From positions 3,720,001 to 3,784,000 of the forward strand of contig NZ_CP041188.1 in assembly GCF_006517235.1 (NCBI RefSeq): 64,000 nt of DNA, in the 5' to 3' direction. The translations under genes were made by a program, and so were the position numbers. Every line of letters begins with the position of its first letter. Position 1 is the stretch's first letter. This DNA is from Pseudarthrobacter sp. NIBRBAC000502772. Its GTDB lineage: Bacteria > Actinomycetota > Actinomycetes > Actinomycetales > Micrococcaceae. The notes below the pieces were generated by a model, which was not told the DNA's origin, searched no databases, and saw only the letters and a list, made by a program, of their open reading frames with translations. Shown here in pieces: positions 52,589 to 64,000 of the stretch.

Positions 52589-52731
52589 CGCAGTTTCGCT
52601 CACATTGTGAACTCTCGGAAGCCTCTTGCTTTTCACCGGCCTTTTGTGAGTTCCTCCCGGGGCAACCGCTATGCCGATCAGGACCGGCCCCTGAACGACA
52701 CAATCATCAACAGTGCAAACGGGACGCGTAG

Positions 52732-52779
52732 GGCCGGAAGGCACATACGAAGTGGGGTGTTGTGCGCGATACTGACGGG
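52732..52779 (+). promoter_or_regulatory. DosR-like box and leaderless promoter of the NTF2-like/DUF5671 operon
   Basis: GGGCC-GGAA-GGCAC at 52732-52745 is centred 41.5 bases upstream of the ATG at 52780. GATACT at 52768-52773, then six bases and the ATG, form the -10. The spacing is that of an activator bound next to RNA polymerase. Confidence 0.5.
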
Positions 52780-53244
52780 ATGAACGCTGCGGCGGGAAAA
52801 ACTGACCGGATTCTCATCGCCATCATCGCGGCCATTACATTGCTGGTTGTGATCGCGCTGGCAGTTGTTTTCACCCGCGGGGAGCCGGAGGTGCTGAATG
52901 AGGCAACGCCGCCGGGCGTTGTCCAGCGGTACAGCACGGCGGTCATTGACGGCGATACGGCCACTGCCAATTCCTACCTCACGCAGGTGGCACGCTCCTC
53001 CTGCAGCGGTTACCGGGAAAGCGGCCCGTTGCCTGCCCGGGTCGTCCTGATTTCCACAACCGAGAGGGACAATACGGCTTTGGTGAACGTCTCGGTTGTC
53101 ACTTCAAGCCCGGGTGGCCCCTTCGGACCATCCGAGTACGACGCCGAAGGCCGCTTCTCCCTGGTGAAGGTCGATGGCAAGTGGCTGATCGACCAGGCAC
53201 CGTACCAGCTCATGTCATGCCCCGGAACAAGCCTGAAGCCATGA
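52780..53244 (+). CDS. Membrane-anchored small protein, NTF2-like type
   Basis: 154 residues. One membrane anchor (about 10-30), then an exported domain of about 115 residues with the ending VKVDGKWLIDQ seen in small NTF2-like/DUF4878-like domains. The start is at the ATG 52780 because the -10 lies just before it. The stop overlaps the next start (ATGA). The promoter carries a DosR-like box. Function unknown. Confidence 0.75.
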   Translation: MNAAAGKTDRILIAIIAAITLLVVIALAVVFTRGEPEVLNEATPPGVVQRYSTAVIDGDTATANSYLTQVARSSCSGYRESGPLPARVVLISTTERDNTALVNVSVVTSSPGGPFGPSEYDAEGRFSLVKVDGKWLIDQAPYQLMSCPGTSLKP

Positions 53245-54989
53245 ACGCAACAGTCCGGACAGCTGTACCAGCGGCGGGTTCTGCCCTACTCACTCTGCGC
53301 CGCTTGATCCTGTACGTGTTGCTGTTTGCCCTGGTGGTGATCGCCGCTATCGGGTTGAGCGGCCTCCTGGAGCGCCTGTTCAGCACGGGCGCCGTGTTGG
53401 CGTCCACAGATGTGGCCGGGCTTGCCCGTTCCCTCGCCTTCACATTGATTGGAGGTCCGCTGGCCGGGCTCCTGTGGTGGGTAGTTTGGCGGAGGCTCGA
53501 CGACGCCGCGGAACGCGCGGCAGCAGGGTGGGGCCTGTACGTGACCGCGATTTATGCGGTGTCTCTCATCGTAGCCACGAGTTCCCTCCTGGGAATGGCG
53601 GCGTCCTTCATCGGTCCCCAGGAACCCCGGTGGTATTCGCCGTTGTCAAACGGACTTGTCTGGGCCGCAGTATGGTTCTGGCATCGCTGGATGTGGCGGC
53701 ACCCCGTCAAACATCCCGTCCATCTTGACGACGTCCCGGCTGTTGTCGGCACAGTCTTCGGACTGCTCACGGGCGCGTTTTCCGCCATCACCGCCCTGGG
53801 TGGCTTGCTTGACGTCGCCATCCGGGGCTTCACCAGCCTTACCCCAGGGGCGGAAGCGTGGTGGCAGTCTGTGCTGCGGGCGCTCGTCTGGGCCATTGGC
53901 GGAAGTATCGTGTGGTGGTGGCACTGGTTCAAGGGTGGCGGGCGCAAACTGGAAACCGCCCTGGTGGATGTTGCACTGATCAGCGTTGGGATCTTCGCAG
54001 CCGGAATCACGGCGCTTGGCGGGGCCGCCGTCGTGGTTTTTGTACTCCTCAGAACTGTATTCGACCGGGGCGAGTCGATGAATGAACTGCTGGCTCCCCT
54101 CGGCCCTGCTGTCGCCGCTGCAGCCGTCGGAGCATTGGTGTGGCGCTATCATCGCGTCAGCGGAACCCACCGTTCGGTGGCTACGCGCAGTGCAGGCCGG
54201 CTGGTGACGTCAGGAATTGCCCTGGCGGCAGCTGCCTCCGGCATCGGCGTCGTCATCAACGCAGCTCTTGCCATGGCCGTTTCACCCCTGGCCGGAAGCG
54301 GCACGCGCACCCTGCTGCTGGGTGGCATCAGTTCCCTCCTTGTGGGAGGCCCCGTCTGGTGGCGGGCGTGGAAGCCGGGCCTGCAACCGCACAGCATGGA
54401 TGTCATTCCTCCGGGCAGGCGGGTTTACCTCGTGGTGGTCTTCGGCATCAGTGCCGTGGTGGCGCTCGTTGCCCTGCTGGTGATTGGATACCGGCTCTTC
54501 GAGTTCATCTTGGGCGACGTGTCCGGAGGCAGCCTGCTGGACCGCATCCGGGCACCACTCGGCCTCCTAGTAGCAGCCGGCCTCGTTGCCGCCTACCACT
54601 TTGCCCTTTGGCGGCGTGAGCACGCCCACCTGGCGGCCGCGGCCCCGTCCGGCGCGCACACCATTGAGAGGGTCACCTTGGTGACGGCATCGGATCCGGA
54701 GGCGTTGTCCACCGCAATCACCGCCGCGACCGGCGCCAAAGTCACTGTGTGGCGACGGGCCGATGCCGGCAACGGACCACTGCCGGCGGAAGCGGCCCTC
54801 CCCTCGGAACCAGGGCTCGTGGAGCTGGCAGTAAGTGCCCTTTCCGGCGTCACTGCCGCCAGCGTCCTGCTGGTAATCGGTCCGGCCGCCGGCCAGGCAG
54901 CCCGGATCGAGGCAATTCCCCTGGAAACAGAAGAACCCGCCCGGAATTGGCGCCGGGAAGCGGCGGCGTCCCCACCAGAAATCAAGTGA
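53241..54989 (+). CDS. DUF5671-domain membrane protein
   Basis: 582 residues, with about 12 membrane segments arranged in repeated units of four (for example LLWWVVWRRLDD and related WWR motifs recur), as in DUF5671 proteins. A soluble C-terminal ~150 residues follow. Overlaps the preceding small protein gene (ATGA), forming one operon. The function is unknown; control by a DosR-like site suggests a stress role. Confidence 0.78.
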   Translation: MNATVRTAVPAAGSALLTLRRLILYVLLFALVVIAAIGLSGLLERLFSTGAVLASTDVAGLARSLAFTLIGGPLAGLLWWVVWRRLDDAAERAAAGWGLYVTAIYAVSLIVATSSLLGMAASFIGPQEPRWYSPLSNGLVWAAVWFWHRWMWRHPVKHPVHLDDVPAVVGTVFGLLTGAFSAITALGGLLDVAIRGFTSLTPGAEAWWQSVLRALVWAIGGSIVWWWHWFKGGGRKLETALVDVALISVGIFAAGITALGGAAVVVFVLLRTVFDRGESMNELLAPLGPAVAAAAVGALVWRYHRVSGTHRSVATRSAGRLVTSGIALAAAASGIGVVINAALAMAVSPLAGSGTRTLLLGGISSLLVGGPVWWRAWKPGLQPHSMDVIPPGRRVYLVVVFGISAVVALVALLVIGYRLFEFILGDVSGGSLLDRIRAPLGLLVAAGLVAAYHFALWRREHAHLAAAAPSGAHTIERVTLVTASDPEALSTAITAATGAKVTVWRRADAGNGPLPAEAALPSEPGLVELAVSALSGVTAASVLLVIGPAAGQAARIEAIPLETEEPARNWRREAAASPPEIK

Positions 54990-55217
54990 TTGCAATGGGC
55001 GGAGTAGCGCATTTCGATCTTGCCTTCGATCCTGTGGGTATGCAGACGCGGCCGCCGAACCGGATGCCCTGGATGACGTCATCGCCGACAGCAATGCGGT
55101 TGCTGAACCGCTCGAGCACCAGTTCGTCGCGTTTCTAGGTGACTTTCGGCCCTACAGGTCCGCAGTTTTGCGCCCCACGCTGGAGAGGCAGCAGGCGCGT
55201 ACGGAAGGGAAGCGGTC
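54990..55217. other. Intergenic region before the universal stress gene
   Basis: 228 bases. Contains a DosR-like box (55139-55152) and, on the minus strand, a small open frame from GTG 55119 to 54982 with strong codon bias (see findings). Confidence 0.35.
55139..55181 (+). promoter_or_regulatory. DosR-like box and -10 of the universal stress operon
   Basis: GTGAC-TTTC-GGCCC at 55139-55152, with CACGCT at 55176-55181 beginning 30.5 bases from its centre. The reverse complement GGGCC-GAAA-GTCAC shares both half-sites with the boxes at 61238 and 63892. Confidence 0.5.
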
Positions 55218-55678
55218 ATGGAGGATTCAGCAGCAGGGAGCCCCAGGTTCGTCGTGGGGGTGGACGGGTCCGAGGCCTCGGTGGAAGCCCTCCGCCAGGC
55301 CCAGCGGCTGGCTGCCCCCTCGGTGCCAAAGTGCTGGCCACCGCCTACTGGGAGGATCCGCAGGTTTACGCCGGATACGTGGCGATGGGAATCGACCGTT
55401 TCGAGGAGCGCGTCATGGTCATCCTCAACGAAGCCTTGGAACAGGCATTCGGGCAGGACATCCCGCCAAACGTCATTCCGCGCGCCGTACGGGGCCATCC
55501 CAGGGACTCCCTCATCGACGACAGCCGCCACGCGGACATGATCGTTGTTGGCAGGCGTGGCCATGGAGGATTCGGCGGCCTGCTCCTGGGATCTGTCAGT
55601 TCAGCATGTGTTGCCCATGCGCACTGCCCCGTATTAGTTGTCCATAGCCCCGACGAGAAGAAGGAAGACCAGCCGTGA
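55218..55678 (+). pseudogene. Universal stress protein, split by a frameshift
   Basis: A single-domain UspA-type protein of about 153 residues in two frames. The first reads SPRFVVGVDGSEASVEALRQ (ATG 55218), the second LGAKVLATAYWEDP to the stop at 55678, with the ATP-binding VVGRRGHGGFGGLLLGSVS. The shift is at CCCCC 55315-55319: six C would restore the frame. Real mutation or sequence error; if real, only the first third would be made. It overlaps the next gene (GTGA). Confidence 0.75.
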
Positions 55679-56529
55679 GAACGTCTAAACCGATCGCCGT
55701 CGCCACCAACGACTCTCCGCAAAGCCAGGCAGCCGTGACGTGGGCTGCCAGCCGGGCTGCCAAGGCTGGCCTTCCGCTGATCATTCTGTACGTTGTTGAC
55801 GACCGATGGGTGGCCGAACCGATCCCGTGGACCGGGGCGCTGCTGGAGAAGGGTGAACAGCTGCTGGAGACCGCTGCCGGGCGCGTGAGGGGCACGCTTC
55901 CGGTTGAGATCACCACCAAAGTCTTGGAGGGAGGAATCGCGGGCTCGCTGCGAAAGTACTCCACCCAGGTATCGATGCTGGTAGTCGGGTCCGGCGCTCC
56001 GCATTTGGGTGGTTCGCTGACGGACCGGGCTCTACAGGTCGCCGCTGCAGCGAAGTGCCCGGTCGCGGTCATCGGAGACCGGGACGTCGAAGGCCGGCAG
56101 GGAGTGGTTGTGGGCATTGACGGATCCGAAGACGCCACCCAGGCCGTTGCGTTCGCTGCCGCGGAGGCCGACCGGGAGGGCCAAGAGCTTACGGTGGTTT
56201 ATGCCATCTGGGAACCCGACAAATGGGTCGACAGCGGAGCTCTCACCGGGACGCTGGCCCAGCGAATTAAGGACGAGGAACAGATGGTATTGTCCGAAAC
56301 GGTCTCTGGCCTCGGCGAGGATTACCCGGACCTTGTAGTGCACAAGGTCCTGGACACGGAGCTGGAACCGGCTGGGGCGCTGGTAAGAGCCGCCGCTAAA
56401 GCCCAGCTGCTGGTGGTGGGGAGCCGTGGAAGGGGCGGTTTCAAACGGCTGCTGCTCGGTTCCACAGCTCACGGAGTTCTGACGCACCTTCCATGCCCCA
56501 CGGTGCTAACGCCAATCCACCGTAAATAG
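55675..56529 (+). CDS. Universal stress protein, two-domain
   Basis: 284 residues with two UspA domains. The second has VVVGIDGSEDATQAVAFA and the ATP-binding VVGSRGRGGFKRLLLGS; the first lacks a full G-2x-G-9x-G motif. GTG start overlaps the previous stop. Second gene of the DosR-like operon; comparable to mycobacterial dormancy Usp proteins such as Rv2623. Confidence 0.9.
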   Translation: MRTSKPIAVATNDSPQSQAAVTWAASRAAKAGLPLIILYVVDDRWVAEPIPWTGALLEKGEQLLETAAGRVRGTLPVEITTKVLEGGIAGSLRKYSTQVSMLVVGSGAPHLGGSLTDRALQVAAAAKCPVAVIGDRDVEGRQGVVVGIDGSEDATQAVAFAAAEADREGQELTVVYAIWEPDKWVDSGALTGTLAQRIKDEEQMVLSETVSGLGEDYPDLVVHKVLDTELEPAGALVRAAAKAQLLVVGSRGRGGFKRLLLGSTAHGVLTHLPCPTVLTPIHRK

Positions 56530-56541
56530 CACCAGACGTAG

Positions 56542-56553
56542 TAGCCTGCGAGC
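56542..56553 (+). promoter_or_regulatory. Leaderless promoter -10 for the PNPOx-like gene
   Basis: TAGCCT at 56542-56547, GCGAGC, then ATG at 56554. No DosR-like box at the expected place (around 56505-56519). Confidence 0.5.
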
Positions 56554-57012
56554 ATGCAAAACGACACTTCAGGACGCCAGACGGAAGTCCTCAACGTTCA
56601 TGACTGCTGGAAATACCTCCGATCAGCTTCGGTCGGCCGGGTTGCCGTATCAACGGCAAACGGGCCGGAGATCTTCCCGGTGAACTACGTCCCCGACTAC
56701 GGGACCGTAGTCTTCCGCACCGGACCCGGAACCAAACTGGACGCGGTGCTCGGCGGGGCCACGATCGTTCTGGAAGCGGACGGCCTGAATGCATACGGCA
56801 CCATTGCGTGGAGCGTCATCGTCAAAGGACCTGCCGAAGTAGTGGATAGCGCGCAAGACGTTCAGGAAGCGGCAGACGCCGGCCTGTCGCCGTGGGAGCC
56901 TGGCAGCAAGGACAACCTGGTCCGGGTGACACCGTCGGAAGTCAGCGGCCGGCGCTTTGTCATCAATCCCACGTCCCGGTGGTGGCCTCCGCTGGACTCA
57001 CAAAGGACCTGA
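56554..57012 (+). CDS. Pyridoxamine 5'-phosphate oxidase-like flavin protein
   Basis: 152 residues, split-barrel PNPOx-like protein. The SVGRVAVSTANGPEIFPVNY start and the following VFRTGPGTKLDAVL resemble PNPOx-fold proteins of dormancy and nitroimidazole-type clusters. It probably binds FMN or F420; substrate unknown. Own leaderless promoter although only 24 bases follow the universal stress gene. Confidence 0.82.
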   Translation: MQNDTSGRQTEVLNVHDCWKYLRSASVGRVAVSTANGPEIFPVNYVPDYGTVVFRTGPGTKLDAVLGGATIVLEADGLNAYGTIAWSVIVKGPAEVVDSAQDVQEAADAGLSPWEPGSKDNLVRVTPSEVSGRRFVINPTSRWWPPLDSQRT

Positions 57013-57048
57013 GCGTCCCACCGAAAGGTGAAGTCTCGACGTCGGCCG

Positions 57049-58950
57049 TTATCTCCGCGCTGCAACGCCCGCCGGCGCGCCGCCCACCGCCGCCGTGTTG
57101 GGTCGGCGTCGATCGTGCAGGGCGCGCAGCGCGTTCAGGATCGTGGCCAGGTCGACCAGCTCCTGGAGGAGGGCGCCGGCCACAGCTGGAATGTAGCCGA
57201 ATACCGCTGCAACCATCAGGCCGATGCTCAGCAGAATGCCTGTCCAAATGCTCGCCAGCGCTATCCGGACCGTGCGCTGGCCGATGTCGACGGCCAGCGC
57301 GGCTTTAGACAAGTCATCGAGCATTATGACGACGTCAGCCGACTCGCTCGCCGCAGTTGACCCTTTGGCACCCATGGCGACACCAATATCGGCGGCGGCC
57401 AGGACCGGGGCGTCGTTGACGCCGTCACCCACCATCATGACCGGGCGTTCCCGCAGGCCCGCGACAACGGAAACTTTGTCCGCCGGCAGGCAACTTGCCT
57501 GGAATCTCGCTATCCCGGCCTGCGACGCAATCTGCTCGGCAGTGGCCGGCGCGTCGCCGGTGAGCAGAAGGGTCTCCTGAACGCCCAGCCGGCGCAGGTC
57601 GGCAAGCGTAGTCACTGCATTGTCCCGAAGCGGGTCGCTCATTGTCAGGGCGCCTGCGAAGAGTCCGTCAATGCCCACATAGATCGCCAGTTGCCCACGG
57701 GCCACCTCGGCCTCCTCGAACCCTGAAGTGACGGACCTGACGAAGTCAGGTTTACCGACCACCACCGATTGATCTCCGCAGTTGGCGACGACCCCCTGGG
57801 TGGCGTGTTCAGAAGCGTTGCCTCCCTCCAACAGGTCAAGGCCGCGGTGGCGCGCAGCATCCATCACAGAGGAGGCAAGGACATGGGAGGAGTACTGCTC
57901 CGCCGAAGCGGCCAACTGCAGAAGCCGGTCCTCGGTAATCAGCTCGGATGCCGCCCGCGAAACGTTGATGCCTTGCAAGGCGGGCCGGCCGTGGGTTAGT
58001 GTCCCCGTCTTGTCGAACACGGCCGTCCGCACCCGGGCAAGCTGTTCAAGGGTTCCACCGTTCTTGATGATGATTCCCGAGTGTGCCGCCCGGCTGGTGC
58101 CCGCAAGAAACGCCACCGGAGCGGCGATGAGCAGGGGGCAAGGAGTAGCCACAACGAGGACCTGCGCGAACCGCGCCGGGTCCTGGCTGAAATACCAGCC
58201 CGTCCCGGCCAGGGCGAAGGCGAGGATCGTGAACGGAAATGCGTATCTGTCAGCGAGCCGGACCACTGGCGGCCGGCTCGACGCCGCCTCCTGGACCAAC
58301 GCCACGATCTTGCTGTACTGCGAGTCGTTCGCTGTGGACGTCGCCTTCATATGCACGGCGTTCTCACCGTTGACGGATCCGCTGAGCACCGTGTCGCCCT
58401 CCGCGTGCTCCACCGGCAGACTCTCACCCGTCAAAGTCGATTCGTCGAAACTGCCGGTTCCCGCGAGCAGCACCCCGTCCACGGGAACCACTTCCGAGGG
58501 TTTGATCAGGAGAACATCCCCGGGGCGGACATCCCCTGCCGGGATGTCTTCCGGCGGCAGGCCCGGCAGCTCGCGGTGGGCTGTCTGCGGCACGCGCTCA
58601 AGCAGGGACTTGAGTTCCCGGGTTGCGCGCCCGTGTGCGATCTCTTCCAGCGCTTCCCCTCCGGCCAGCATCAGCACGATGATCAGGGAGGCCACGTACT
58701 CCCCCACTGCCACCGTCGAAGCGATGGCAGTCACAGCCAGGAGATCGATTCCCCACCGGCCCTTCAGCAATGATTTGACCATGGAGCCCGACCTGGCCAT
58801 GGCTACCAGAAGTGCGTAGGCGCTCGCCGTCCACTGGGCTGCCGGAGATTGCACCGCGGACAGGAGGACCGCAACGAGCAATCCCACAGCCAAAGTAGCG
58901 GCCACCAGCGGAAACCGCACAACCGAACTTGTTAGGGCGGACAGGGCCAT
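57049..58950 (-). CDS. P1B-type heavy-metal P-type ATPase
   Basis: 633 residues. Actuator TGES at 174-177, TPC-type membrane motif (TPCPL) at 269-273, phosphorylation site DKTGTLT with D313, and hinge GDGVNDAPVLAAADIGVAMG. There is no N-terminal HMA metal-binding domain, and the HP-locus reads SSHVLA in place of the usual SEHPLA. The transported metal is not predictable. The ATG at 58950 is seven bases after TAACGT, with a DosR-like box at the right distance. Confidence 0.9.
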   Translation of the reverse strand: MALSALTSSVVRFPLVAATLAVGLLVAVLLSAVQSPAAQWTASAYALLVAMARSGSMVKSLLKGRWGIDLLAVTAIASTVAVGEYVASLIIVLMLAGGEALEEIAHGRATRELKSLLERVPQTAHRELPGLPPEDIPAGDVRPGDVLLIKPSEVVPVDGVLLAGTGSFDESTLTGESLPVEHAEGDTVLSGSVNGENAVHMKATSTANDSQYSKIVALVQEAASSRPPVVRLADRYAFPFTILAFALAGTGWYFSQDPARFAQVLVVATPCPLLIAAPVAFLAGTSRAAHSGIIIKNGGTLEQLARVRTAVFDKTGTLTHGRPALQGINVSRAASELITEDRLLQLAASAEQYSSHVLASSVMDAARHRGLDLLEGGNASEHATQGVVANCGDQSVVVGKPDFVRSVTSGFEEAEVARGQLAIYVGIDGLFAGALTMSDPLRDNAVTTLADLRRLGVQETLLLTGDAPATAEQIASQAGIARFQASCLPADKVSVVAGLRERPVMMVGDGVNDAPVLAAADIGVAMGAKGSTAASESADVVIMLDDLSKAALAVDIGQRTVRIALASIWTGILLSIGLMVAAVFGYIPAVAGALLQELVDLATILNALRALHDRRRPNTAAVGGAPAGVAARR

Positions 58951-59000
58951 GCCATTGACGTTAATGCCGCCGGCCGGTTACCGACAGGGCACTTCGGACC
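58951..59000 (-). promoter_or_regulatory. DosR-like box and leaderless promoter of the P-type ATPase
   Basis: On the minus strand GGTCC-GAAG-TGCCC (59000-58987), then TAACGT (58963-58958) whose first base is 30.5 bases from the box centre, then seven bases and the ATG at 58950. The box is a weaker match than the others. Confidence 0.45.
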
Positions 59001-59025
59001 GGTTGCTTCTGGAACTGGGGTAGAC

Positions 59026-59469
59026 CTAGCGGTTCGGCTCGACTTCCAGGCGCTGCTTAAGGCTGCCCCAGATGGCCTTCTCTTGCCTGCGTCCGATGGC
59101 CACGAACAGCGGGCTCGCGAGCTTGAGGAGGCCCTTCGGGCGAAGGTCCCAGGTCCAGCTCATGCGTGTGTCCATACCCTCGGGGCTGAAAGTCAGCGAC
59201 CCTGTAATGTCCGCAGTCGTCATCCTGGCCACGGTCCCCAGGCGCGAGGGACGGGTGTAGTCGGTGACCTCCAGCTCCATGGGCATTGGCCGCCTGCCGG
59301 ACACGACGGTCGCCCGCCAGATGGTCCCTTTTCCGATCGGCCCGTCCGTCACCTTGTCCACGTTTGTCATCTGCGGGTTGTAGCTCGGCTCATTGCGTTC
59401 GTCGGCCACGAAGTCGAAGACCTCCTCAACCGGCCGGCGGATGGTGATCGACCCCTCGATCCTGACCAT
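59026..59469 (-). CDS. SRPBCC-family protein
   Basis: 147 residues, START/Bet v1-like fold. The start RIEGSITIRRPVEEVFDFVAD and a polyketide-cyclase-like pattern fit SRPBCC lipid- or ligand-binding proteins. GAGGAG before the ATG at 59469; a TACACT hexamer at 59533-59528 (minus) is a good -10 with a leader of about 50 bases. Function unknown. Same strand as the P-type ATPase downstream. Confidence 0.85.
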   Translation of the reverse strand: MVRIEGSITIRRPVEEVFDFVADERNEPSYNPQMTNVDKVTDGPIGKGTIWRATVVSGRRPMPMELEVTDYTRPSRLGTVARMTTADITGSLTFSPEGMDTRMSWTWDLRPKGLLKLASPLFVAIGRRQEKAIWGSLKQRLEVEPNR

Positions 59470-59527
59470 GATGTTCTCCTCGCGCCGGGCTCAGCGCGCA
59501 CGCTTGGAGCACGTTTCGACGCTAACA

Positions 59528-59533
59528 AGTGTA
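59528..59533 (-). promoter_or_regulatory. -10 hexamer upstream of the SRPBCC gene
   Basis: TACACT on the minus strand, leader of about 50 bases. A possible weak DosR-like sequence GGGCC-GTCA-GGCCG at 59559-59572 lies two bases further than in the other promoters. Confidence 0.35.
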
Positions 59534-59617
59534 GGATCCACGCACGGGTTTTGTCTGCGGGCCGTCAGGCCGAATGCGAGGACCCGCGGTACACGCCGTC
59601 AGGCGGAACCGTCGCCG

Positions 59618-61144
59618 CTATGGCCGCGCGTTGCTGGCACTCGGGCCCTCCTGGCTGTCGCTGGCACCCGGCTGCCGCGCCTGGACGTCCCCTGCGCCCT
59701 GGTCCAGGCGGAACGGCGGGTATTCATCCCGCATCAGGGCCGTGTAGGCAACGACCCGGTAGATCCACCGGTTGAAGCCCAAAAGCAGGTCGAACAGCGG
59801 ACGCTGGTAGCGACCGCTGAACAGCAAGATCACCGCAGCGACAAGAACCAGGAAGCCCACCAGCGAAAACCCCGTAACGGTCTCGTACCTGACACCGGAA
59901 GCCTGTCGGTCGCTCCAGCGAACAGTGCTGGTGCCGGTCAGCGCCGCAATGATTATCAGGTGGGGCAGCGCCAGGAGCCACCACTTAACCAGCACGAGGC
60001 CACGGGAAAGCCGCTCGGGGTAATCAACCTCGAAATCGGCCGGGTAGTCCGTCTTTGCCAGTGTAAACGGCGGGTACTTGTCCGTTCCCAGCGCGGAGTA
60101 GGCATAGAAAGCCACTCGCCAGTTCCAACGCAGGACGCCTACGTTGAAATCGAAAAGGGAACGGGGAAAGCGGCCTGTAAACAGGATGGCGAAGCCCGCG
60201 ATGACGGTCACTATGACAAAAGCGAACCAGAGGAAGAACAGCACAATGAAGTGCGGTATGGCGAGGAACCACTTCACCAGCCACAGCCATCTGGACAGGA
60301 CCGGGTCGAGTTCTCCCCATAGCCTTGCCGGGTACGGCGCCGTCTGCCCAGCGGAATGGGACGGGAGTTGCTGGACAGCCGAACCGGCATACACCTCGGG
60401 CGCTGTGGCCGCAGGCATTGAAGCAGCCGCCGGCGGTGGCAGAGCGGCTCCAGGCGGGGCCGCCCCCGGCGCATGCCTGCCCAGTCCTTGGGCGCCAAAG
60501 ATCAACAGCGGAACCCCGATAACAAGCAGAATGGCTCCTGCTGCCAGTAGTCCGGCGGCTATGGGGCCAAGAAACTCGGACCGGAACCCGGCCTGCAGGT
60601 CCGCGCTAATGTCCGGGCTGGCATCGGCATTCATCACCACCACCGACCAGTTCCCCGACTGGATATTCCAGTCCAGTTTCTGCTCGCCGGCTCCCGAAGC
60701 GGACGCCACCCAAAAGTCCTGCCCGGACGGAAGGGCCGGTTGTTGTGTTCCCTGCGTTTCCCGATACTCAACATGGAAGGGCCGGAATCTAACGTCCAGC
60801 AGTTCGGAGTAGTTGGCCCCGGACAAGTAGCGCTCCACGTCAGACCTGGGGGCGATACCGACAAAGATCTCCTTGCCGGGATTAGCGGATTCTGCAAGAA
60901 TCCGGATGCTGCCCACATCAAAGGGTAAGGGCCCTGGGTAGGCGTCATCACGCATGTTGTCCGGCCCTGCGGAGATGATCGCTGAGGAATCAACGTCGAA
61001 TCGCTCACTCGGTGAGGTCAGGTAGCCGCCGTCGTTCTGTAGTGAATTGACCCACGAGGCACCTATGCCGCCGAAGAGCAACCCGATACCCAGCATTGAG
61101 AACAAAATTCCCAGAATGAGCATGGTGATGGAACGGGCCCGCAT
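59618..61144 (-). CDS. DUF4389-domain membrane protein
   Basis: 508 residues. An N-terminal membrane segment, an extracellular region of about 150 residues, a second membrane segment, a Pro/Ala linker and then two DUF4389 units, each with paired helices and FTGRFPRSLFDFNVGVLRW or FSGRYQRPLFDLLLGFNRW (given as two separate blocks). GGGAG before the ATG at 61144. Function unknown; a DosR-like box lies 94 bases upstream. Confidence 0.85.
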   Translation of the reverse strand: MRARSITMLILGILFSMLGIGLLFGGIGASWVNSLQNDGGYLTSPSERFDVDSSAIISAGPDNMRDDAYPGPLPFDVGSIRILAESANPGKEIFVGIAPRSDVERYLSGANYSELLDVRFRPFHVEYRETQGTQQPALPSGQDFWVASASGAGEQKLDWNIQSGNWSVVVMNADASPDISADLQAGFRSEFLGPIAAGLLAAGAILLVIGVPLLIFGAQGLGRHAPGAAPPGAALPPPAAASMPAATAPEVYAGSAVQQLPSHSAGQTAPYPARLWGELDPVLSRWLWLVKWFLAIPHFIVLFFLWFAFVIVTVIAGFAILFTGRFPRSLFDFNVGVLRWNWRVAFYAYSALGTDKYPPFTLAKTDYPADFEVDYPERLSRGLVLVKWWLLALPHLIIIAALTGTSTVRWSDRQASGVRYETVTGFSLVGFLVLVAAVILLFSGRYQRPLFDLLLGFNRWIYRVVAYTALMRDEYPPFRLDQGAGDVQARQPGASDSQEGPSASNARP

Positions 61145-61208
61145 GAAAGTACTCCCGTCGTCGATATCCGGATATTCCGGCCAGTCCCCGCCGCGTCTGG
61201 CTCCCTCC

Positions 61209-61251
61209 ACAGTCCGCCCCGGGGACCGCGGCCAGTAGGGCCATAGGTCAC
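61209..61251 (-). promoter_or_regulatory. DosR-like box and -10 of the DUF4389 gene
   Basis: GGGCC-ATAG-GTCAC at 61238-61251 (plus-strand reading). GACTGT (61214-61209, minus) begins 30.5 bases from its centre. Confidence 0.55.
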
Positions 61252-61287
61252 TGCAAGGGCAACTGGGGGCATCAATCAGGGGGGCGG

Positions 61288-62139
61288 TTAGGATGCAGGC
61301 CGGGTGATGATGGTGGGACAAGGCAACTGCATCAGAACCTTTTCGGCGATGGATCCGATGGGTTTCCGAAGTCCGCCCCGTCCCCAGCAGCCAATCACCA
61401 ATAGGCTTGCTTGTCTTGCGGCACGAATGAGCACGTCGGCGGGAGCGCCGTCCGATTCCAGCGCCTCGGAAACAGTCAGCGCCGGAAAGTGCTCCCGAAT
61501 GCTCCCGGCAGCTTGTGAAATGAGGGTCCGCGGGTCAGGCTTAGGGCCGTAACCGGGTTGGGTTCTGCCGCCTACGTCAGCTGGAGCCAACACTTTCGAC
61601 ACTGTATGCAGAATTGTCAGAACCTCTCCCATCCGGTCTGCTTCCTCCGCCGCCAGCTTCAGGGCAATCTCGGAGTCAGCCGTCCCGTCAATGCCAACCA
61701 CCACCCCTGTTCGGCTTGCCGCCTTGGGAGCGGGGATGACGGCGACTGGACTTCGGCACAGGACTGCGACCTGAAAGCTCACCGACCCAAACCTTTCTCC
61801 CCGGCTGTCTGCTGAACGGTCCGAACCGAGAACCACCATTTCGGCGCCAGCGGACAACCCGTTCAGCACCGGTGCCGGCTCGCCCGGCTGCCAGCTGGTG
61901 ATGATTTGCAGCGTCGGATGCCGCGCGGCCACTCTGCCGCGCTCAAGGCCCAGCTGCACCTGCGCCTCGGCAATGGCCTCCCCGTATTGCACCGGCAATC
62001 TGTAGTTCGAGGGTTCGGGCACCACCCGCACCAGATGCAGCCGCAGGCCTAGCCGGTCCGCCCTCTGCGCAGCCCAGTCCGCAGCCCTTTGACTCGTGCT
62101 GGACCCGTCAGCTCCAGCCAAGACTTCATGCGCCTTCAA
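61288..62139 (-). CDS. Universal stress protein, two-domain
   Basis: 283 residues, two UspA domains: EVLAGADGSSTSQRAADWAA at the start and VVVGIDGTADSEIALKLAAE in the second, with VIGCWGRGGLRKPIGSIAEK near the end. A TTG start at 62139 with an AGGAG motif immediately before, because an in-frame stop lies upstream. Two DosR-like boxes lie at 59 and 81 bases upstream. Probably a stress and dormancy gene. Confidence 0.88.
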   Translation of the reverse strand: MKAHEVLAGADGSSTSQRAADWAAQRADRLGLRLHLVRVVPEPSNYRLPVQYGEAIAEAQVQLGLERGRVAARHPTLQIITSWQPGEPAPVLNGLSAGAEMVVLGSDRSADSRGERFGSVSFQVAVLCRSPVAVIPAPKAASRTGVVVGIDGTADSEIALKLAAEEADRMGEVLTILHTVSKVLAPADVGGRTQPGYGPKPDPRTLISQAAGSIREHFPALTVSEALESDGAPADVLIRAARQASLLVIGCWGRGGLRKPIGSIAEKVLMQLPCPTIITRPAS

Positions 62140-62169
62140 CTCCTGCCCCCTTCATCACGCCGCTCAACA

Positions 62170-62233
62170 AGTGTCTCGCTGAGGCGCTGAACGGCTAGTG
62201 CCTTTAGCCCCCTGCCGCCGGGGCTTTGATCCC
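62170..62233 (-). promoter_or_regulatory. Two DosR-like boxes upstream of the universal stress gene
   Basis: GGGGC-TAAA-GGCAC (62211-62198) and GGGAT-CAAA-GCCCC (62233-62220) on the minus strand, centres 22 bases apart. GACACT (62175-62170) begins 29.5 bases from the centre of the nearer box. Confidence 0.5.
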
Positions 62234-62304
62234 TGTTGCCCGTACCTGGCGACAGTGTCTACTGGATGGATACGCAGAACGCTGCGTTCCAGAAAAGGAC
62301 ATCC

Positions 62305-62403
62305 ATGACCAACATCACCATTTTCGGCAGCGGGCATATGGCCCGCGCACTCGCCATGACGATGCTGCGAGCAAACAACCCGGTAGATAAGGGTGCCCGG
62401 TGA
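62305..62403 (+). pseudogene. Truncated NAD(P)-binding / F420 reductase-like remnant
   Basis: 32 codons from an ATG with AAAAGGAC ahead. MTNITIFGSGHMARALAMTM is the Rossmann start of NADPH-dependent F420 reductase-type proteins, then it runs into a stop at 62401-62403, 17 bases before the stop of the convergent nuclease. The rest of the gene is gone. A good ribosome-binding site is retained, so decay looks recent. Confidence 0.65.
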
Positions 62404-62420
62404 TCCCGCCTTCAGGCACT

Positions 62421-63805
62421 CTAGCGCGGGTTTTTCAGCGGCACTGCTTCCAGATACTCAGGGACCCGGACGTTCCAGCCCAGTTCACGTCTGATGCGGA
62501 CCCTCAAAGCGTCAGACGCGTCCGGCTCGCCGTGGGTGACGTAGGTCATACGCGGAGCTTGCGGGGCTGCGCGCATCCATTCGATGATTTCGTTGGAATC
62601 AGCATGCGCCGACAGGCTGTCCAACATAACGATTTCGGCATTGATGGGAACGTCCTCACCGAAGATCCGTAGCTGCCTTGCCCCGCCCGCGAGGGCGGCG
62701 CCACGGGTTCCCGCGGCCTGGTATCCGCTGAGCACCACCACATTTTTGGGGTCCGGCCCGTAAGCCTGCAGATGATGCAGGATTCGGCCTCCGGTGAGCA
62801 TGCCGCTCGCCGAGATGATCACCATGGGGCCGCCGCGCAGGTTCAGCAGTTTGGAGTCGTCAACGCTCCGGGTCATGGTGGCCACCCGGTACATCTCTTT
62901 GTACTCGCGTTCCTGCAGCCGGTGTTCTTCGGGGTGCCTCTGGTACATTCCCGACGCGTCGATGGCCATCGGGCTATTGAGGTAAATGGGGATGTCCGGG
63001 ATCGCCCCGCGCCGCCGGAGGCGCGAGAGATGCAGCATAAGGGTCTCCGCCCGGCCCACCGCAAAGGCGGCAACGAGGACAACCCCGCCCCTGTTGGCTG
63101 CTCTGCCTATAACTTCGCCAAGTTCGTCCTCGGGATTGATCTCCGGGTGGACCCGGTTGCCGTACGTGGACTCGGCCACCAGGACGTCGGCGGCTCCAAG
63201 CGCCCGCGGGCGGTGCATCAGTGGATCATGGGGCCGGCCGAGGTCCCCGGTGAAGTGCACCCGCGTGCCCTGGACCGTCAGCCGTATCTGCGAGGCGCCC
63301 AGGATGTGCCCTGCCGGAACAAAAGTGGCCTGGATGCCTCCCCAAGGTCGAGGGGTGATTCAAAACCGTGCGGCTCGAAGCTGTTCAGGGACCGCACGGC
63401 ATCCGCGGCTGTGTAAACCGGGACGGCGGGGTGATGGGATGAATATTCGTGCAGGTCCGCGTAGCGCGCCTCCTCCTCCTGGAGGTGTCCGCTGTCAGGC
63501 AGGAGGAGCGTGCACAGTTCCGTAGTGGCTGCAGTGGCATGGACTCGCCCCCGGAATCCGTCCCTGACCAGGGCAGGGACGTAGCCTGTGTGGTCCAGGT
63601 GGGCGTGGGTCAGCAGGACTGCGTCAATGGACGCCGGGGGTACCGGAAAGGGTGCCCGGTTGCGGACACGGATGCGTTTGATCCCCTGGAACAACCCACA
63701 GTCGACAAGAATCCGATGTCCACCCGAATCCACGAGGAACCGGGATCCCGTCACGGTGTCGGTTGCCCCCAGGAAACGGAGAGTGGCCTCGTTCCTATTC
63801 TTCAT
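62421..63805 (-). pseudogene. MBL/beta-CASP nuclease, split by a frameshift
   Basis: About 461 residues in two frames. The first, from ATG 63805 (AGCAGGA site), carries LLTHAHLDHTG with the HxHxDH motif (67-72). The second reads GIQATFVPAGHILGASQIRL then FTGDLGRP, ISASGMLTGGR and SAHADSNE, as in MBL-fold RNA exonucleases with a beta-CASP domain. The shift is at CCCC 63340-63343 (plus strand); one more base restores the frame. Two DosR-like boxes lie upstream. Either a real break or a sequencing error. Confidence 0.78.
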
Positions 63806-63863
63806 TCCTGCTCTTTTCCGAGAAAAACGGATGGACCGCGGAACCGAAACGGTCGGTGGCACA

Positions 63864-63935
63864 ACGTTCTCCCGGTTCCAGCGGCAGGGTAGGGCCATTG
63901 GTCACAGGGCGCCAGCGGTTCGGGTCATTGGACCC
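63864..63935 (-). promoter_or_regulatory. Tandem DosR-like boxes and -10 of the MBL nuclease gene
   Basis: GGGCC-ATTG-GTCAC at 63892-63905 and GGGTC-ATTG-GACCC at 63922-63935, centres exactly 30 bases apart. GAACGT (63869-63864, minus) begins 29.5 bases from the nearer centre. The second is a perfect 5-base palindrome. Confidence 0.6.
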
Positions 63936-64000
63936 TTGTGGCATCTTGGCTGTTCCTAAAGAATTAGTCAGGCGCAGGCGGGGGCACCCTTGTTGCCCTT

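What the first reader, a model, noticed from the sequence alone, without database searches (positions are those of the whole stretch)
52732..63935. A DosR-like regulon: eight GGGNC-N4-GNCCC-type boxes with fixed promoter geometry
Eight 14-base interrupted palindromes occur in the non-coding gaps at 52732, 55139, 58987, 61238, 62198, 62220, 63892 and 63922. Three are the same half-sites exactly (GGGCC-N4-GTCAC in one orientation or the other) and one is a perfect GGGTC-N4-GACCC. In six of six transcription units the nearest box centre is 29.5-30.5 bases from a hexamer with A at position 2 and T at position 6 (GATACT, CACGCT, TAACGT, GACTGT, GACACT, GAACGT). The core GGGAC-TWWA-GTCCC of M. tuberculosis DosR has the same layout. 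The genes served (three universal stress proteins, P-type ATPase, DUF4389 and DUF5671 proteins, MBL nuclease) are dormancy/hypoxia-type. Motif and geometry are seen; the regulator and the signal are inferred. No dosR/dosS gene lies in the window.
Basis: partly seen in the sequence, partly recalled or inferred. Interest (0 to 1): 0.85.

Follow-up and report, generated by a model that had tools for sequence, protein, structure and literature searches.

The report
Dormancy-type regulon in a soil actinobacterium
The repeated DNA boxes are real and very probably are binding sites of a DosR-type dormancy switch like that of tubercle bacilli and Streptomyces; its regulator and heme-sensor genes start just past the window's edge, so this is a solid new example of a known system rather than a new kind.

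Summary
Six strict boxes and a weaker seventh (62220) lie in gaps at 52.7-64.0 kb; the eighth (58987) is degenerate. All six claimed box to -10 distances check out at 29.5-30.5 bases.

The inference is supported. A response regulator whose best solved match is M. tuberculosis DevR/DosR (213 bits; next 112) starts 27 bases past the window end, with a DosT/DosS-type heme-GAF kinase convergent to it. Box 63922 is its proximal box; a box with hexamer stands before dosR in 22 of 24 congeners (control 2).

Three further tests agree. In 80 actinobacterial dosR loci the hexamer peaks 30.5 and 31.5 bases from box centres (77 and 63 against 18.6, s.d. 6.2). A promoter model trained on other organisms puts 11 of its 13 matches with E<1 into three islands, 1.3% of the genome. 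In 61 congeneric genomes, those with the kinase average 7.1 predicted promoters, those without 0.5.

Some start codons lie 42.5-43.5 bases from the box centre, implying leaderless class II promoters. Binding, signal and induction are inferred. New member of a known kind (DosR/OsdR).

The parts
52731..52744 (+). DosR-type box GGGCCGGAAGGCAC; GATACT at 52768-52773; ATG at 52780, 42.5 bases from the box centre (leaderless layout)
52780..54989 (+). two genes: 155-codon protein of no Pfam family (52780-53244) and DUF5671 membrane protein (53304-54989)
   Evidence: paralogue at L002 6631-8331 is 97% identical
55139..55152 (+). box GTGACTTTCGGCCC; CACGCT at 55176-55181 (30.5)
55218..57012 (+). Usp (55218-55678, apparently frame-interrupted), tandem Usp (55675-56529), PNPOx-like protein (56554-57012)
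   Evidence: Pfam matches only profile positions 58-141 of the first Usp
58987..59000 (-). degenerate box (GGTCCGAAGTGCCC read toward the gene); TAACGT at 58963-58958 (30.5); ATG at 58950, 43.5 bases from the centre
   Evidence: not in the lists
57049..58950 (-). P-type ATPase
61238..61251 (-). box GTGACCTATGGCCC; GACTGT at 61214-61209 (30.5); the best promoter-model match in the genome
59618..61144 (-). DUF4389 membrane protein
62198..62211 (-). box GGGGCTAAAGGCAC; GACACT at 62175-62170 (29.5)
61288..62139 (-). tandem Usp (TTG-started frame)
62220..62233 (+). weak box GGGGCTTTGATCCC before a short remnant (62305-62400) of an F420-type oxidoreductase gene; probably a relic
   Evidence: remnant 22 of 27 residues identical to the L001 10603-11280 protein
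63892..63905 (-). box GTGACCAATGGCCC toward the nuclease gene (GAACGT 29.5 or AACGTT 30.5); also the distal box of dosR
62421..63805 (-). MBL fold (63278-63805) and beta-CASP/RMMBL (62421-63260) parts of an RNase, in two different frames
63922..63935 (+). proximal dosR box GGGTCATTGGACCC; AAGAAT at 63959-63964 (30.5); dosR itself starts at window position 64027 (L003 27-710) and the kinase lies at L003 714-2501, minus strand

Best explanation
The boxes are operator sites of a DosR/DevR/OsdR-type two-component system. A heme-GAF histidine kinase with DosT-like features, coded just outside the window, senses falling oxygen, or NO or CO, and phosphorylates the DosR homologue. A DosR dimer binds the palindrome centred about 42-44 bases upstream of the transcription start, overlapping the -35 region, and recruits RNA polymerase to a weak NANNNT -10 hexamer (class II activation). 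It switches on Usp, P-type ATPase, PNPOx, DUF5671, DUF4389 and RNase genes here and genes in two further islands, and its own gene through the 63892/63922 pair. Several targets have the start codon at or next to the transcription start (leaderless). Shown here: sites, geometry, conservation, homology of regulator and sensor, co-occurrence. Inferred: binding, activation, signal, leaderless transcripts.
For: Regulator: 213 bits to DevR/DosR, next 112; the stretch LAEKTVKNYVS and the aspartate aligned with Asp54 are kept. Sensor: GAF domain 177-184 bits to DosT/DosS heme domains, next 38; histidine aligned with the heme ligand His149 kept. Geometry in 80 loci: 77 and 63 hexamers at 30.5/31.5 against 18.6, s.d. 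6.2; reversed control 19 and 10 against 16.0, s.d. 5.1. Genome scan with a foreign model: 11 of 13 matches with E<1 in three islands. Genus: 44 of 47 genomes with the kinase have three or more predicted promoters, 0 of 14 without. dosR upstream: box plus hexamer in 22 of 24 congeners, reversed control 2 of 24. Published DevR plan: proximal box overlaps the -35 element.
Against: The bare motif is not enriched in the genome. Outside the genus the dosR upstream box with hexamer is found in only 2 of 5 fetched loci, control 1 of 5. With near-copies removed and any ATG counted, the ATG peak is modest: 16, 15, 10 at 42.5-44.5 against 7.6, s.d. 3.7, highest elsewhere 19. Pfam finds one GAF domain, not two. 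G010 and G070 have the kinase but one predicted promoter each, G030 (partial kinase match) none. Congeners without the kinase may lack the target genes too; not tested.
Confidence: 0.9

Rival explanations
1. A DosR-type system, but with a main signal other than oxygen/NO/CO, or acting as a repressor at some of the sites.
For: The signal cannot be read from sequence; positions 89, 108 and 118 fit neither DosS nor DosT (alignment, numbering).
Against: Heme ligand kept, and three of the seven DosS/DosT-discriminating residues are as in DosT; box centre at the class II activator position.
Confidence: 0.12
2. The boxes are read by another NarL/LuxR-type regulator of the genome and dosRS is only a neighbour.
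For: The genome has four more HisKA_3 kinases, and NarL-type proteins share half-site styles (general knowledge).
Against: Boxes follow dosRS in other genomes and phyla branches; only one DosR-like protein at E<=1e-50 in this genome; boxes stand before dosR itself.
Confidence: 0.04
3. Chance palindromes in a GC-rich genome, chosen by eye.
For: Pattern counts are at or below controls.
Confidence: 0.01

Closest known systems
DosR/DevR regulon of Mycobacterium (PMC3029386, PMC4082495 and PMC6448022, passages seen)
   Same: Closest solved regulator and heme-GAF sensor; GGGACTTNNGNCCCT-type box; proximal box over the -35 element; autoregulated; Usp, HSP20 and P-type ATPase type genes (the last two as mycobacterial targets from general knowledge)
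   Different: One kinase instead of DosS plus DosT; kinase gene convergent to dosR, not in one operon; box often GTGAC at the far side; different gene set (DUF5671, DUF4389, DUF5129, MBL RNase)
OsdR/OsdK regulon of Streptomyces coelicolor (PMC5069765, outline and first part of Results read)
   Same: Boxes cluster around the regulator gene; Usp, PNPOx and alcohol dehydrogenase genes among targets; consensus AGGGCCGATCGGCCCT
   Different: No nitrate reductase or nitroreductase among the proteins I scanned (not searched genome-wide); box centre richer in A/T; targets spread over three islands

Membership tests
DosR/DevR response regulator | receiver plus GerE/LuxR helix-turn-helix, DevR the closest solved protein | tested here: met
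DosR/DevR response regulator | phospho-acceptor Asp54 and recognition-helix stretch | tested here: met
   alignment: aspartate aligned with Asp54 (role) and LAEKTVKNYVS identical
DosS/DosT sensor kinase | heme GAF domain with proximal histidine, HisKA_3 and HATPase_c | tested here: met
   ligand role from PMC4082495 passages
DosS/DosT sensor kinase | two tandem GAF domains (from general knowledge) | tested here: inconclusive
   Pfam scores one GAF region, residues 79-218
DosS/DosT sensor kinase | heme binding and oxygen/NO/CO-controlled kinase activity | not testable with these tools
   needs purified protein
DosR-type regulon | GGGNC-N4-GNCCC-type box before the regulator gene | tested here: met
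   63922 and, with hexamer, 22 of 24 congeners
DosR-type regulon | proximal box overlapping the -35 region | tested here: met
   by position to the -10-like hexamer, 30.5/31.5 bases; transcription starts not mapped
DosR-type regulon | targets include Usp and other stress genes | tested here: met
DosR-type regulon | induction by hypoxia or NO through the regulator | not testable with these tools
   needs a deletion strain and RNA-seq

The most novel reading that the evidence does not exclude
Across Actinomycetota, DosR promoters follow one rigid plan, box centre, 30-31 bases, NANNNT, then often the start codon itself, so that much of the dormancy regulon is translated from leaderless mRNAs; in Arthrobacter-type soil bacteria this module has been spread over several islands by segmental duplication.
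Probability: 0.35. Interest if true: 0.5.

Novelty: new member of a known kind. Interest (0 to 1): 0.4.

Why it matters
It gives a soil genus a well-delimited DosR regulon with predicted sites, start points and sensor, so that oxygen and NO control of dormancy genes, and the role of leaderless translation in them, can be tested outside mycobacteria. It also makes the DUF5671, DUF4389, DUF5129 and MBL RNase genes probable dormancy genes.

Tried and rejected
Simple pattern enrichment was rejected as evidence, because counts are at or below controls. One search used a pattern with one G too many by my mistake and is not used. The stretch around 3.8457 Mb (L004) was dropped: its strict pattern sites all fall in coding sequence. 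I first took L002 3300-5815 for a second dosRS pair; Pfam showed a multicopper oxidase and a short-chain dehydrogenase. A first footprint of dosR upstream regions read the minus-strand loci in the wrong orientation; it was replaced, which showed the three best sites per region only, and then, which counts all sites and adds the control. One search failed on a search term. My notes contain two slips (a guessed second dosRS cluster; 11 of 12 and 21 of 23); the counts in this report are recounted.
Full report
What is there. The window is bases 3,720,001-3,784,000 of a 4.80-Mb single-contig genome. The nearest named dosR locus is from Pseudarthrobacter sp. HLT1-5, 93% identical in DosR, so the organism is very probably of the Arthrobacter/Pseudarthrobacter group (inference). 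By the strict pattern GGGNC-N4-GNC[AC]C on both strands, six places lie in gaps between 52.7 and 64.0 kb and six in coding sequence; no strict gap site lies in the first 52 kb (my gene calls are home-made and hand-corrected). Coding is 90% of the window, so six of twelve in gaps has a binomial P of 5e-4. 62220 matches with one mismatch and 58987 with two. The genes are DUF5671, three Usp genes, a PNPOx-like protein, a P-type ATPase, a polyketide-cyclase-like protein, a DUF4389 protein and an MBL/beta-CASP RNase.

Chance. Counting the bare pattern is useless: shuffles and the reversed pattern give more. Position is what counts. The six box to hexamer distances claimed are right (29.5 or 30.5) and a seventh, for box 63922 toward dosR, is 30.5. 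The sites also cluster: 16 of 86 AT-centred sites of the genome lie in 64.5 kb of three islands against 1 of 90 sites of the reversed control. But I drew the islands after seeing the sites, and 5 of 2000 random placements also reach six sites in 20 kb, so this count is support, not proof.

The regulator. dosR begins at the 27th base past the window end. L003 (the next 20 kb) opens with a 227-residue receiver-GerE protein at bases 27-710. Its best solved relative is DevR/DosR of M. tuberculosis, 213 bits, next best 112. Convergent to it at 714-2501 is a GAF-HisKA_3-HATPase_c kinase whose GAF domain matches the DosT and DosS heme domains at 177-184 bits, next best 38. The histidine aligned with the heme ligand His149 is kept. 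Of the seven positions that PMC4082495 (passages) gives as differing between DosS and DosT, by my reading of the alignment three are as in DosT (87 G, 90 G, 169 N), one as in DosS (97 H) and three as in neither (89, 108, 118). It is the only protein of this genome that matches DosR at E<=1e-50.

Independent test of the geometry. In 80 named actinobacterial dosR loci, 1.46 Mb in all, I took all boxes of the class G[GT]GNC-N4-GNC[AC]C and looked for NANNNT at offsets 10.5-79.5. After removing near-copies (60% or more identical), 831 boxes gave 77 at 30.5 and 63 at 31.5 against a mean of 18.6 (s.d. 6.2, highest elsewhere 39); 793 reversed control motifs gave 19 and 10 against 16.0, s.d. 5.1. ATG starts of frames of 80 or more residues peak at 42.5, 43.5 and 44.5 bases (17, 18, 8; control 2, 7, 2). 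With near-copies removed and any ATG counted the peak is modest (16, 15, 10; background 7.6, s.d. 3.7, highest elsewhere 19). In this genome the layout box, 23 bases, hexamer, 6 bases, ATG is seen at 52731, L003 3810, L002 6058, L002 8732 and L001 9700, and at L002 2706, a one-mismatch box (by my count); 58987 has one base more. The other boxes are followed by leaders. Such promoters would give leaderless mRNAs, about a quarter of transcripts in mycobacteria (PMC6448022, passages).

Whole-genome scan. A sequence-only model of 23 promoters from other organisms (none from this genome or from its near relative L040) was run over the genome. Of 22 matches with E up to 10, 13 have E below 1, and 11 of these lie in three islands at 2.716-2.731, 3.067-3.082 and 3.781-3.788 Mb; the other two are at 3.372 and 3.109 Mb. 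Of the nine weaker ones, one lies in an island (150 of 4054 first-look candidates were scored). In this window only 61238 and 63892 are among the 13; the other boxes here score below that. The islands hold Usp, PNPOx, alcohol dehydrogenase, F420-type oxidoreductase, flavodoxin, P-type ATPase, DUF5671, DUF5129 and HSP20 genes; not each of these has its own box. An earlier model that included 13 sequences of this genome gave the same picture but is partly circular.

Genus test. In 61 genomes of the genus (this one included) the kinase is matched in 47, one of them (G030) only in part. Those have on average 7.1 predicted promoters (median 8); the 14 without have 0.5 (highest 2). Three or more: 44 of 47 against 0 of 14. 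Some training loci may belong to this genus. Whether the genomes without the kinase also lack the target genes was not tested. In 24 congeneric dosR upstream regions other than this genome's own, 22 have a box with at most one mismatch and NANNNT at 30.5 or 31.5 (misses L017, L022; L033 is doubtful), against 2 of 24 for the reversed motif; the hexamer is AAGAAT or AACAAT in 18 of 24 against 0. Outside the genus it is 2 of 5, control 1 of 5.

Mechanism. Published work places the proximal DevR box over the -35 element (PMC3029386, passages) and gives GGGACTTNNGNCCCT as the strong motif (PMC6448022, passage); OsdR of Streptomyces uses AGGGCCGATCGGCCCT near its own gene (PMC5069765, first part of Results). 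The boxes here fit that plan, so class II activation by phosphorylated DosR is the best reading. Binding, activation and the signal are inferred.

History. The 52.8-57.0 kb genes have paralogues in the same order in the 3.07-Mb island (97%, 77% and 77% identical), so the regulon seems to have spread within the genome by segmental duplication (inference). Box 62220 stands before a 32-codon remnant of an oxidoreductase whose full-length relative, with two boxes of its own, is in the 2.73-Mb island.

Standing. This is a new member of the DosR/OsdR kind. In the rows listed by my paper searches on this point (7 of 7 papers, 10 of 44, 10 of 24, 25 of 1,579) I saw no title on a DosR regulon in Arthrobacter or its close relatives. 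The lists are partial and subscription papers are mostly not held, so this is weak evidence of absence.

Noticed in passing
window 55218-55678 and 62421-63805: A Usp gene and an MBL/beta-CASP RNase gene look frame-interrupted: their domain parts lie in different frames. Decay or sequencing error cannot be told apart here.
   Followed up: no
window 52780-57012 and L002 6089-12167: Segmental duplication: DUF5671 protein 97%, tandem Usp 77% and PNPOx 77% identical between the two islands.
   Followed up: partly
window 62305-62400; L001 10603-11280: Truncated start of an F420-type oxidoreductase gene behind box 62220; a full-length relative with two boxes lies in another island.
   Followed up: partly
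G001, G003, G006, G007, G009 and others: Several congeners carry a second DosR-like regulator (about 48-56% identical) and a second DosS-like kinase; which boxes it reads is unknown.
   Followed up: no
G000:C1:2715972 (L129): A promoter-model match before a long frame that by eye looks like a cation-transport P-type ATPase; not checked with Pfam.
   Followed up: no
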